DNA from: Halothece sp. PCC 7418
Lineage (GTDB): Bacteria > Cyanobacteriota > Cyanobacteriia > Cyanobacteriales > Rubidibacteraceae
NCBI RefSeq assembly: GCF_000317635.1
Contig: NC_019779.1
Span: forward strand, 2,914,001-2,978,000
Reading direction: 5' to 3'
DNA length: 64,000 bases
A program made the position numbers and the translations under genes. Of the stretch, positions 3,689 to 49,394 are shown piece after piece; the first letter of the stretch is position 1; every line of letters begins with the position of its first letter. The notes under the pieces are model-generated. The model was not told where the DNA came from. It was given only the letters and a program-made list of their open reading frames with translations, and made no database searches.

Positions 3689-3760
3689 AGCCCGTGACGA
3701 GACTTGAACTCGTGACCTCACCCTTACCAAGGGTGTGCTCTACCGCTGAGCTACACGGGC
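3689..3760 (-). tRNA. trnT: tRNA-Thr (GGT anticodon)
   Basis: On the minus strand it folds as a 72-nt cloverleaf. The acceptor stem is GCCCGTG / CACGGGC with U as discriminator, the D-arm is GCTC / GAGC, and the anticodon stem CACCC / GGGTG encloses loop TTGGTAA (anticodon GGT). The T-arm is ACGAG / CTCGT with loop TTCAAGT. CCA is not encoded. It lies 7 nt downstream of tRNA-Tyr and is probably cotranscribed with it. Confidence 0.95.
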
Positions 3761-3767
3761 GTGGGAA

Positions 3768-3849
3768 TGGGCCAGGTTGGATTTGAACCAACGTAGGCTT
3801 AGCCAGCGAATTTACAGTCCGCCCCCATTAACCACTCGGGCACTGACCC
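3768..3849 (-). tRNA. trnY: tRNA-Tyr (GTA anticodon)
   Basis: 82-nt class II tRNA with a long variable arm. The acceptor stem is GGGTCAG / CTGGCCC with one G-U pair and A as discriminator. The anticodon loop CTGTAAA gives GTA. The T-loop is TTCAAAT. CCA is not encoded. It is the upstream member of a Tyr-Thr tRNA pair on the minus strand. Confidence 0.95.
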
Positions 3850-47573: not shown

Positions 47574-47684
47574 AATAACGGTTACTAAGTGAGTAATGAT
47601 TGTATGGCTAGTCAAAATTAATCAGTTTCTAATCCATTATTACAGTAATTCAGTCAGAAAGCCCTCGATTTCAAATTGAGGGAC

Positions 47685-47725
47685 GGGGCTTTCAAGGTGC
47701 GGAGGAAACCTCCGCACACAGCCCC
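47685..47725 (-). repeat. 41-nt terminal hairpin, left copy (inverted)
   Basis: GGGGCT / AGCCCC outer stem and GTGCGGAGG / CCTCCGCAC tip, loop AAA. It overlaps the stop of the RHH gene. The right copy at 49240-49280 is its inverted match, differing in the tip stem. Confidence 0.8.
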
Positions 47726-47904
47726 TCATGAATGACACATTGGAGCTTTAGCTCCCTGTGTCCTCTTTTGATTGTGGAAGCAAAGCGTGTATCAATCCAG
47801 TCTTCAACTAGTTGGGTCATAGTTTTTCGTTTATACCTTGCGTATAGTCGTAGCTTTTCGATTCTAGAGACTTCTACTCGCATACTCAGTCTTTGCTTTT
47901 GCAT
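47692..47904 (-). CDS. ribbon-helix-helix DNA-binding protein of the TnpB element
   Basis: 70 residues from ATG 47904; a GTG two codons earlier is possible. Residues about 3-40 form a ribbon-helix-helix (CopG/MetJ-like) fold: QRLSMRVEVSRIEKLRLYAR as strand and first helix, KRKTMTQLVEDWIDTRF as second. The tail (HRELKLQCVIHEGLCAEVS) is encoded by the left terminal hairpin, and its stop lies inside it. The gene is divergent from tnpB across 57 nt, so it could repress both promoters. This is an inference from fold and position. Confidence 0.7.
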   Translation of the reverse strand: MQKQRLSMRVEVSRIEKLRLYARYKRKTMTQLVEDWIDTRFASTIKRGHRELKLQCVIHEGLCAEVSSAP

Positions 47905-47961
47905 TGTCACCCGTTGGATTCATTTATGCTACAATAATTCTAACCGATTAAATGATATATC

Positions 47962-49254
47962 ATGTACGGATGCCAACAGGATCGAGTTAAATCTAATTCA
48001 AATATAATACCTGTCCTTGAACATATCTGCCTCACCGCCAACAATCTAACAAATTGTGGAATCTATTATGCCCGTCAAACTTTCTTTAATGAAAGTCGGA
48101 TCATTGGAAAATATGAACCAGAAGAAGTCCTAAAACAACAAGTTAACTTCAAAGCCCTCTACTCTCAATGCGCTCAACAGGTTCTTAGAAGCGTCGCAGA
48201 ATCTTTTAAGTCCTATAAGGGTTTGAGAAAAGCCTTTTTTAAGGGAGAAATTAGTAATCATCCTAAACTTCCCAATTATAGAAATAAAGGAGGAATGGCG
48301 GTTGCTTCCTACCCAAAACAAGCTCTGAAGTTAAAGAGTGGTCAAGTTAGAGTTCCTTTAGGGAAAACAATTAAAGCATGGTTTGGTCTCTCAGAATTTT
48401 TTGTTCCTTTTCCTTCTAATTTAGAATGGGAGAGCATTAAAGAGTTAAGAATCCTTCCTAGAAACCGAGAGTTTTATATCGAATGGGTGTATGAAAGACC
48501 TGAAGTCAAAACTACAGTTAATTCTACCGAAGCACTAGGGGTTGATCCAGGTTTGGATAATTGGTTAACTTGTGTTTCCACCATTGGAGAGTCTTTCATC
48601 ATTGATGGGAAAAAAGTTAAATCTCTAAATCAAAATTATCACCGTCGAGTCTCTTCTCTCAAGAAAGGAAAGCCTCAAGGTTATTGGGATGGTGAGTTAG
48701 CGAGAATCACAGAAAAAAGAAATCGTCAAATTAGAGATGCTGTAAATAAAGCGGCGAAAATGGTTGTTAACTACTGTCTTAATAAGGATATAGGGATCAT
48801 CGTTTTCGGTTGGAATAAAGGTCAGCGTCAAGGAGTCAATATAGGGAAGAAAAACAATCAGAACTTTGTCCAGATTCCCACTGCTAAATTAAAAAATCGG
48901 ATTCAGCAGTTAGCAAAGGAACACGGTATTGAGTTTGTAGAAACTGAAGAATCTTATACCTCAAAAGCCTCTTTTCTAGATCGTGATTTGCTACCGACCT
49001 TCGGTGAAAAACCCGAAAGGTGGCAACCGTCAGGAAAGCGAGTAACGAGAGGATGCTATCAAGATTCTCAGGGAAGAATCGTTAATGCTGATGCCCAAGC
49101 CGCGGCAAACATTCTGAGAAAAGTAGAGATACAGCTAGGCTTAGTCCTAGCCAAGGTCAGTAGAGCAGCTTTGAACCTGCCCCAGAGATTTTATCTTTGG
49201 AACTCCAAACGAAAAGCGCGAAGCATTATGGCTTTAGGAGGGGCTGTGTGCTGA
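47962..49254 (+). CDS. tnpB: TnpB RNA-guided nuclease family protein, no zinc ribbon
   Basis: 430 residues, cyanobacterial MYGCQQ-type TnpB. The RuvC triad is present: D in ALGVDPGLDNWLT (about residue 194), E in EFVETEESYTSKAS (about 329) and D in IVNADAQAAANIL (about 376). The usual CxxC...CxxC zinc ribbon between E and the last D is missing and is replaced by FLDRDLLPTFGEKPERWQPS. TnpB proteins use an omega RNA made from the 3' end of the gene and its flank; here the stop codon lies inside the right terminal hairpin. The ORF looks intact. Nuclease activity is inferred. Confidence 0.88.
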   Translation: MYGCQQDRVKSNSNIIPVLEHICLTANNLTNCGIYYARQTFFNESRIIGKYEPEEVLKQQVNFKALYSQCAQQVLRSVAESFKSYKGLRKAFFKGEISNHPKLPNYRNKGGMAVASYPKQALKLKSGQVRVPLGKTIKAWFGLSEFFVPFPSNLEWESIKELRILPRNREFYIEWVYERPEVKTTVNSTEALGVDPGLDNWLTCVSTIGESFIIDGKKVKSLNQNYHRRVSSLKKGKPQGYWDGELARITEKRNRQIRDAVNKAAKMVVNYCLNKDIGIIVFGWNKGQRQGVNIGKKNNQNFVQIPTAKLKNRIQQLAKEHGIEFVETEESYTSKASFLDRDLLPTFGEKPERWQPSGKRVTRGCYQDSQGRIVNADAQAAANILRKVEIQLGLVLAKVSRAALNLPQRFYLWNSKRKARSIMALGGAVC

Positions 49255-49280
49255 ATTCATTTCAGCACCCTGAAAGCCCC
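49240..49280 (+). repeat. 41-nt terminal hairpin, right copy
   Basis: GGGGCT / AGCCCC outer stem and GTGCTGAA / TTCAGCAC tip, loop TTCAT. It contains the tnpB stop codon and would lie within an omega RNA. It is the inverted partner of 47685-47725. Confidence 0.8.
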
Positions 49281-49394
49281 GTCTATCATGCGAAGCAACG
49301 TTTGGAATCCACGCGATTTTAATCCGTGGAGAGTTCAAATGAGGATTGAAATGAGTAGAAGTTAGGGTTTGCTATACTATTTGAGCGTTGATTC

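What the first reader, a model, noticed from the sequence alone, without database searches (positions are those of the whole stretch)
47657..49329. TnpB element whose two divergent genes end in inverted, covarying 41-nt hairpins
The 41-nt blocks at 47685-47725 and 49240-49280 are inverted matches outside the tip stem. The tip stem differs on both sides in a paired way (GTGCGGAGG/CCTCCGCAC versus GTGCTGAA/TTCAGCAC), which suggests selection for structure rather than sequence. One block contains the stop of tnpB, the other the stop of a ribbon-helix-helix gene, in different reading frames, so protein conservation cannot explain it. A left 21-nt hairpin (47662-47682) and a right one (49309-49329) lie in direct orientation, as in IS200/IS605 ends. 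The element may make two structured RNAs, one from each end, only one of them expected from known tnpB omega RNA.
Basis: partly seen in the sequence, partly recalled or inferred. Interest (0 to 1): 0.75.

Follow-up and report, generated by a model that had tools for sequence, protein, structure and literature searches.

The report
Tiny mobile hairpin inserted twice
The two matching hairpins at the ends of this cyanobacterial transposon are two separate copies of one 45-letter mobile DNA hairpin that also inserts into other transposons and into ordinary genes, so they look like passengers rather than two guide RNAs.

Summary
Left 47683-47727 and right 49238-49282 are inverted copies (36 of 45 identical) of one hairpin with different but paired tips. 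The explanation changes: both are copies of a dispersed 45-nt palindrome, 5'-ACGGGGCTT..tip..ACAGCCCCTC-3'. The same sites occur filled and empty in four contexts: the left end of this family (6 of 9 own-genome copies filled), its right end (9 of 9 filled here; empty at five loci in three related genomes), a DDE_3 transposase gene (25 filled, 6 empty copies in one genome) and a histidine kinase gene (filled in 2 genomes, empty in 3 others plus a paralogue). Clean insertions are 45 nt (46 for one tip type) and share no target duplication. The own genome has about 50 copies. The tips covary strongly over 45 versions, but G-T pairs are no commoner than A-C mismatches, which suggests DNA-level pairing. 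The two-RNA idea is not supported; the right copy adds an optional hairpin where omega RNA is expected. Closest kind: very small mobile palindromes (cyanobacterial SDRs, REPs, Rickettsia palindromic elements). I found no description of this family, but the main SDR paper was not held. How it moves is unknown.

The parts
47640..49338 (+). IS200/IS605-type element, tnpB-bearing, no tnpA: TTAC 47640-47643 precedes the left end, TCAA (49335-49338) closes the right end
   Evidence: by eye in the alignments, all nine own-genome copies have TTAC before and TCAA at the end of the shared part; no syntenic empty chromosomal site found in 9 genomes of the family
47662..47682 (+). IP-L, left-end hairpin
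   Evidence: kept in copies with and without the insert
47683..47727 (+). left copy of the 45-nt mobile hairpin (tip GTGCGGAGG/CCTCCGCAC)
   Evidence: clean empty version GAGGG|ATGAATGAC in L006 (own genome) and L308; empty also in L285/L300 (one locus), L301, L314; model R1 72.2 bits
47742..47755 (+). third small hairpin GGAGC-TTTA-GCTCC; its stem varies in a paired way between copies
   Evidence: seen by eye; not counted statistically
   Evidence: Pfam DUF6364 E=1e-4, below the curated cut-off; no NCBIfam match
47962..49254 (+). tnpB, RNA-guided nuclease family, 430 aa
   Evidence: PF01385 57.8 bits, PF07282 23.8 bits (below its cut-off of 26.3); NF040570 guided_TnpB 165.7 bits
49238..49282 (-). 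right copy of the 45-nt mobile hairpin, opposite orientation, in the presumed omega-RNA region; it supplies the last codons and the stop of tnpB
   Evidence: empty TTTAA|CCCGTT in L308, L314 against filled L008, clean to the base; absent also from L301, L302, L307, whose 3' flank differs slightly from the window; filled in window, L003, L008, L300; model R1 52.7 bits
49308..49330 (+). IP-R, right-end hairpin

Best explanation
The two covarying blocks are separate insertions of one very small mobile palindrome (45 nt, 5'-ACGGGGCTT-internal loop-tip stem-ACAGCCCCTC-3') into an IS608-like tnpB element, one in the 3' arm of the left-end hairpin and one, inverted, at the 3' end of tnpB. SHOWN: same arms and same unit at both ends; filled and empty versions of the same site in four unrelated contexts; no shared target duplication; insertions in two host genes that keep the frame; many copies per genome; tips hypervariable but paired. 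INFERRED: the unit moves as a folded single strand, most simply in trans by a Y1 (HUH) transposase such as those of the IS200/IS605 elements it lives in; its tip is kept paired at least partly by copying one arm from the other during replication rather than by selection on an RNA; the right copy is carried as an optional extra hairpin in the omega RNA scaffold.
For: Histidine kinase gene: five empty loci (L257 G135; L258 and L266 G237; L259 G174; paralogue L267 G206) and two filled ones (L255 G019, L256 G206) differing by exactly 45 nt; the open frame is 455 aa in empty L257 and 470 aa in filled L255, both with HisKA and HATPase_c. DDE_3 transposase in G083: 25 copies filled, the 25 model matches lying in the 25 full-length copies; 6 empty (four at 94-96% identity, two at 75%). 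Left end: L006 and L308 empty, L001-L005 and L007 filled. Right end: L301, L302, L307, L308, L314 empty; window, L003, L008, L300 filled. L006 and L300 have an empty left and a filled right site. A unit apparently inside another unit in L170 (by eye). Own genome: 54 model matches, 50 of them at E <= 3.3e-5. 97 of 123 distinct-context copies are exactly 45 nt. Covariation over 45 versions: 122 cells changed on both sides against 40.4 +/- 4.4 in shuffles, score 0.484 against 0.133 shuffled and at most 0.112 when slid. G-T against A-C cells in the tips: 0 and 6 of 683, 2 and 4 of 256, 8 and 7 of 358. In L103, L116, L123 and L245 the asymmetric internal loop has become self-complementary. The own genome has 9 Y1 transposase matches.
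Against: I did not search systematically for an autonomous parent, a transposase gene flanked by copies. The insertion target is not constant beyond a usual G on the 5' side. A duplication of 1-3 nt cannot be excluded at single sites. Gain rather than loss is by parsimony; precise loss is possible for some left ends. A left-filled, right-empty copy was not seen. Many copies in my sample sit at tnpB left ends (76 of 123 are followed by ATGAA), partly because searched with that flank. In L272 the host-gene insertion is 72 nt, the unit plus other sequence. The unit is 46 nt in L005 and in short derivatives with the same tip. L008/L009 read CTGAATG in place of ATGAATG at the left site. In one search two of five measures (pairs with a double change, 8 against 7.6; pair types, 23 against 22.2) do not exceed shuffles.
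Confidence: 0.9

Rival explanations
1. One reading: the element makes two structured RNAs, the omega RNA on the right and a second RNA from the left, and the hairpins are conserved for binding TnpB or another partner.
For: Strong covariation; the right block lies where the omega RNA is expected; the left block is kept in 6 of 9 copies.
Against: Copies without left, without right or without both exist in the same family; the unit occurs in unrelated genes; the tnpB promoter probably lies downstream of the left block (by eye, 47911-47961; no promoter scan was run); G-T pairs are no commoner than A-C mismatches; no Rfam match at gathering, and only two matches with E above 9 in the relaxed search.
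Confidence: 0.05
2. A conserved single-stranded DNA module of the left end recognised by the Y1 transposase, ancestral to tnpB elements and lost in some.
For: The unit stands upstream of tnpB, on the same strand and next to IP-L: 7 of 7 scanned downstream ORFs have TnpB domains (L082, L084, L085, L088, L089, L116, L119); variable stems with constant arms.
Against: Block-free left ends that are long perfect hairpins also stand upstream of tnpB (4 of 4 scanned: L284, L288, L290, L298); the same unit, inverted, sits at right ends and in unrelated genes.
Confidence: 0.1
3. Internal duplication or inversion of one end of the element onto the other, followed by drift.
For: The two blocks are inverted relative to each other.
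Against: The left site can be empty while the right is filled (L006, L300), empty sites lack just the unit, and the unit occurs far from this element.
Confidence: 0.02
4. The unit moves through an RNA intermediate, as was proposed for cyanobacterial SDRs (recalled from the abstract), not as single-stranded DNA.
For: Structured, no shared target duplication, many copies.
Against: No excess of G-T over A-C cells that would mark one strand as RNA; no link to a reverse transcriptase was examined.
Confidence: 0.2

Closest known systems
Small dispersed repeats (SDR) of Nostoc, Elhai et al. 2008, Genome Res 18:1484
   Same: Cyanobacterial, very small, mobile, compensatory changes, nested, found in minitransposons (abstract recalled; paper not held; passages citing it seen in PMC4390886, PMC2884548 and PMC3116915)
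   Different: SDRs are 21-27 nt (recalled); this unit is 45 nt with constant GGGGCT/AGCCCC arms, and I saw it inserted in frame in host genes
REP elements, GTAG and CGTC super-families (Di Nocera 2013, PMC3733652; parts 1-2 of the text and passages seen)
   Same: Short dispersed palindromes with changing, paired stems; some inside genes; R. conorii RPE-4/6 belong to the CGTC group
   Different: No GTAG tag; CGTC stems are 8-9 bp with AT pairs first, loop 4-5, mostly a CCA tail. The results section names five phyla for CGTC repeats without Cyanobacteria, although the abstract speaks of both super-families in phyla such as Cyanobacteria. GT pairs were often seen in GTAG repeats, few here
Rickettsia palindromic elements
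   Same: In-frame insertion in host coding genes
   Different: About 150 bp with ten families (PMC10969869, passages seen)
IS200/IS605 (IS608-like) tnpB elements and their short derivatives
   Same: Carrier of both copies: TTAC/TCAA borders, direct IP-L and IP-R, tnpB
   Different: The 45-nt unit is not a part of the carrier, as empty carriers show

Membership tests
IS200/IS605 element (carrier) | tnpB/OrfB protein | tested here: met
IS200/IS605 element (carrier) | subterminal hairpins in direct orientation, TTAC / TCAA borders (IS608 values recalled) | tested here: met
   9 of 9 aligned copies by eye
IS200/IS605 element (carrier) | Y1 transposase in the element | tested here: not met
   no PF01797 match in the element (its coordinates are absent from the 9 matches); some tnpB-only elements of this family lack it too (recalled)
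omega RNA hairpin | present in all copies of the tnpB family | tested here: not met
   right block absent in L301, L302, L307, L308, L314
SDR | mobile: filled and empty sites | tested here: met
SDR | compensatory changes in the stem | tested here: met
SDR | length 21-27 nt (recalled) | tested here: not met
   97 of 123 copies are 45 nt, the rest 43-49
SDR | sequence match to a named SDR family | not testable with these tools
   paper not held
CGTC REP | unpaired CGTC tag, 8-9 bp stem starting with AT pairs, 4-5 nt loop, mostly a CCA tail | tested here: not met
   on the minus strand the unit ends ..GCCCCGT, but the C is paired and the arms are GGGGCT/AGCCCC (definition)
GTAG REP | terminal GTAG | tested here: not met
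   no GTAG at either end of the two window copies
Rickettsia palindromic element | in-frame insertion in host genes | tested here: met
   L255/L256 (45 nt) and L272 (72 nt composite)
Rickettsia palindromic element | about 150 bp | tested here: not met
MITE | terminal inverted repeats with target-site duplication | tested here: not met
   no duplication shared by the clean junctions; 1-3 nt at single sites cannot be excluded

The most novel reading that the evidence does not exclude
A previously undescribed family of 45-nt single-strand-mobile hairpins in cyanobacteria, moved in trans by Y1 transposases, whose tip stem is rewritten by template switching, and which remodels omega RNAs, transposase genes and host proteins by in-frame insertion.
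Probability: 0.35. Interest if true: 0.7.

Novelty: new member of a known kind. Interest (0 to 1): 0.5.

Why it matters
How hairpins of a few dozen bases spread is an open question, and this family gives clean material for it: filled and empty copies of one site, in four unrelated contexts, one of them within a single genome 25 to 6. It also warns that covariation plus conserved arms at a tnpB end, easily read as a functional RNA, can come from a mobile palindrome, and that the 3' region of tnpB, where omega RNA is expected, can gain such a hairpin.

Tried and rejected
Rfam: nothing in the element at gathering thresholds, two matches with E above 9 in the relaxed search, taken as chance. Two functional RNAs: rejected, see rivals. 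Inversion of one end: rejected. Early readings of my own that I dropped: that the left block is a conserved left-end module of tnpB elements (after), corrected by the transposase and kinase copies; that L006/L008/L009 keep a GCTC footprint (written in the notebook), a misreading of the alignment: L006 is cleanly empty and L008/L009 read CTGAATG; that the 5' arm AGAAAGCC was copied from the block, left open because block-free left ends carry it too. Intrinsic terminator: no T run after either hairpin, by eye only. Chromosomal empty site of the whole IS: not found in 9 genomes of the family. Plasmid records: 13 with tnpB-like matches at 60-80% identity, none covering 80% of the query; not followed up. 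Literature searches (open-licence PubMed Central papers only) that would have shown this family or a tnpB with a ribbon-helix-helix partner; listings only, nothing in them describes it.

Rows dropped and limits: 3 of 48 distinct blocks (one of 47 nt, two of 66 nt) were left out of alignment A1. Sampling for A1 fixed the arms by pattern, so the arms' conservation, and the 100% pairing of the 6 arm pairs that lifts the total to 93.9% of 628 cells, is by construction; the tip helices alone pair at 91.9% and 85.2%. One search used 80 of 88 distinct element strings and chose the pairing offset that maximises Watson-Crick pairs; one search counts without that choice, on an alignment in which rows of other lengths are partly out of register. 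Genome searches sampled 291 and 386 (stricter filters) genomes of larger groups. Copy counts come only from fetched loci. That the DDE_3 transposase is of the IS630 type is recalled.

Full report
WHAT IS IN THE WINDOW. The window lies in a complete genome of 4,179,170 bases in one contig. One genome placed in the same genus (G145) has its two pattern matches at the same coordinates as a contig titled Halothece sp. MAG, so this is a Halothece-like cyanobacterium. At 47640-49338 sits a tnpB-bearing IS200/IS605-type element: TnpB 430 aa, a divergent 72-aa ORF, subterminal hairpins in direct orientation, and, by eye, TTAC before and TCAA at the end of the shared part in all nine aligned copies. 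The finding's blocks are real: 45-nt inverted copies of one another, 36 of 45 identical, folding far better than shuffles on either strand.

COPIES IN THE SAME GENOME. The element has nine near-complete copies (L001-L009). The right block is present in 9 of 9; the left block in 6 of 9. L006 has a clean empty left site (GAGGG|ATGAATGAC against GAGGG[45 nt]ATGAATGAC); L008 and L009 are empty with CTGAATG. One filled copy (L005) has a different tip and a 46-nt unit. Short derivatives with the left end, part of the tnpB 3' region and the right end also occur, with or without the block.

A FAMILY WITH CONSTANT ARMS AND A HYPERVARIABLE, PAIRED TIP. A pattern fixing only the arms and 3' flank matched 17 of 291 genomes of the order, with 0 matches of the reversed control pattern, and 41 stretches in a collection of 84,980 species genomes, 38 with cyanobacterial titles and 3 titled Gracilibacteria metagenome bins. 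On 45 distinct versions each of the 8 tip pairs shows changes on both sides; the tip helices pair at 91.9% and 85.2% of cells; 122 cells are changed on both sides against 40.4 +/- 4.4 in shuffles; sliding the partner lowers the score from 0.484 to at most 0.112. Two of the five measures (number of pairs with a double change, number of pair types) do not exceed shuffles. A model built from these finds 54 matches in the own genome, 50 at E <= 3.3e-5, including the right block of this finding at 52.7 bits, and matches in 18 of 386 genomes of the phylum, own genome included.

THE UNIT IS MOBILE. Four unrelated contexts show the same site with and without it. (1) A sensor histidine kinase gene: five empty loci in four genomes and two filled ones, 45 nt; the open frame is 455 aa empty (L257) and 470 aa filled (L255), with HisKA and HATPase_c in both. 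(2) A DDE_3 transposase gene (IS630 type, recalled): in G083, 25 filled copies and 6 empty ones, four close and two diverged; filled relatives occur in G201 and G210. (3) The left-end hairpin of this tnpB family: empty in L006, L285/L300 (one locus), L301, L308, L314. (4) The right end: empty in L301, L302, L307, L308, L314 (five loci in G012, G040 and G082), filled in the window, L003, L008 and L300; L308/L314 against L008 is clean to the base, the others differ slightly in the 3' flank. The clean junctions fit insertion of 5'-ACGGGGC...GCCCCTC-3' with no shared target duplication. L300 holds a further, different palindromic insertion inside its right block, and L170 seems to show one unit inside another. 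A second host gene (L272; its empty homologue L344 in G120 has AAA_35 and CHASE2 domains) has a 72-nt in-frame insertion containing the unit. Of 123 distinct contexts in fetched loci 97 have exactly 45 nt. Being a multiple of three, it can keep a reading frame; in the G083 transposase, though, the tip brings a stop codon.

WHY THE TIPS COVARY. RNA made from one strand should leave G-U pairs on that strand and no A-C mismatches. Counts of G-T and A-C cells are 0 and 6 of 683, 2 and 4 of 256, and 8 and 7 of 358: few, and no excess of G-T. In L103, L116, L123 and L245 the asymmetric internal loop has become self-complementary, giving longer near-perfect palindromes. Both fit copying of one arm from the other at the DNA level. 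Selection for a folded DNA strand, or for an RNA, is not excluded; related copies are not independent, and no tree was used.

WHAT THE TWO COPIES DO HERE. The right copy replaces the tnpB end GCA TAA of an empty relative by GGA GGG GCT GTG TGC TGA, a few extra residues, and adds a hairpin between tnpB and IP-R, where omega RNA is expected; whether TnpB tolerates it is untested. The left copy interrupts the 3' side of the left end. The divergent ORF ends in it only in L001 and L002 among the nine uncut versions found, so the two stops are coincidence. In two other elements of this genome a Y1 transposase match lies beside the left end, in the place of this ORF (2653109-2653459 and 3849408-3849758), so the carrier is probably moved in trans.

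NOVELTY. It works like, and best fits, the loose class of very small mobile palindromes. It fails the length of SDRs (recalled), the tags and stems of REPs (definition seen in PMC3733652) and the size of Rickettsia palindromic elements (PMC10969869). Eight literature searches of open-licence papers listed nothing that describes it, but the main SDR paper was not held, so it may be described there.

CHANGES AFTER CHECKING.

Noticed in passing
L146, L160, L235-L242 (genome G083): A DDE_3 (IS630-type) transposon whose transposase gene holds the 45-nt unit, with a stop codon in its tip, has 25 near-identical copies beside 6 uninterrupted ones: it seems to have multiplied although interrupted.
   Followed up: partly
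L300, right end: A different palindromic insertion of about 52 nt sits inside the right block: perhaps a second family of small mobile palindromes.
   Followed up: no
own genome, e.g. 521065-521450, 1745025-1745405, 3656635-3657085: Short non-autonomous derivatives keep the left end, a piece of the tnpB 3' region and the right end, with or without the 45-nt unit.
   Followed up: partly
L284-L298: Block-free left ends upstream of tnpB can be long perfect hairpins ATTCATCC..GGATGAAT; other block-free copies have AGAAAGCC as the 5' arm instead. What switches the arm is unclear.
   Followed up: partly
47742-47755: Third small hairpin with a TTTA loop whose stem changes in a paired way between copies and short derivatives.
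   Followed up: no
L245, L103, L116, L123: Copies in which the internal loop has become self-complementary, turning the unit into a longer near-perfect palindrome.
   Followed up: partly
own genome 2653109-2653459 and 3849408-3849758: Y1 transposase matches lie beside the left ends of related elements, in the place that the small divergent ORF has in this element.
   Followed up: no
L276, L279 (G046); L164 (G042): The unit also lies inside other sequences that look like dispersed repeats: L276 and L279 share the flanks ttcaacgcg[unit]ggaaacccgcgcaacg; L164 reads gggggtttcc[unit]cccatgagcg.
   Followed up: no
window 3689-3849: Two tRNA genes side by side on the minus strand.
   Followed up: no
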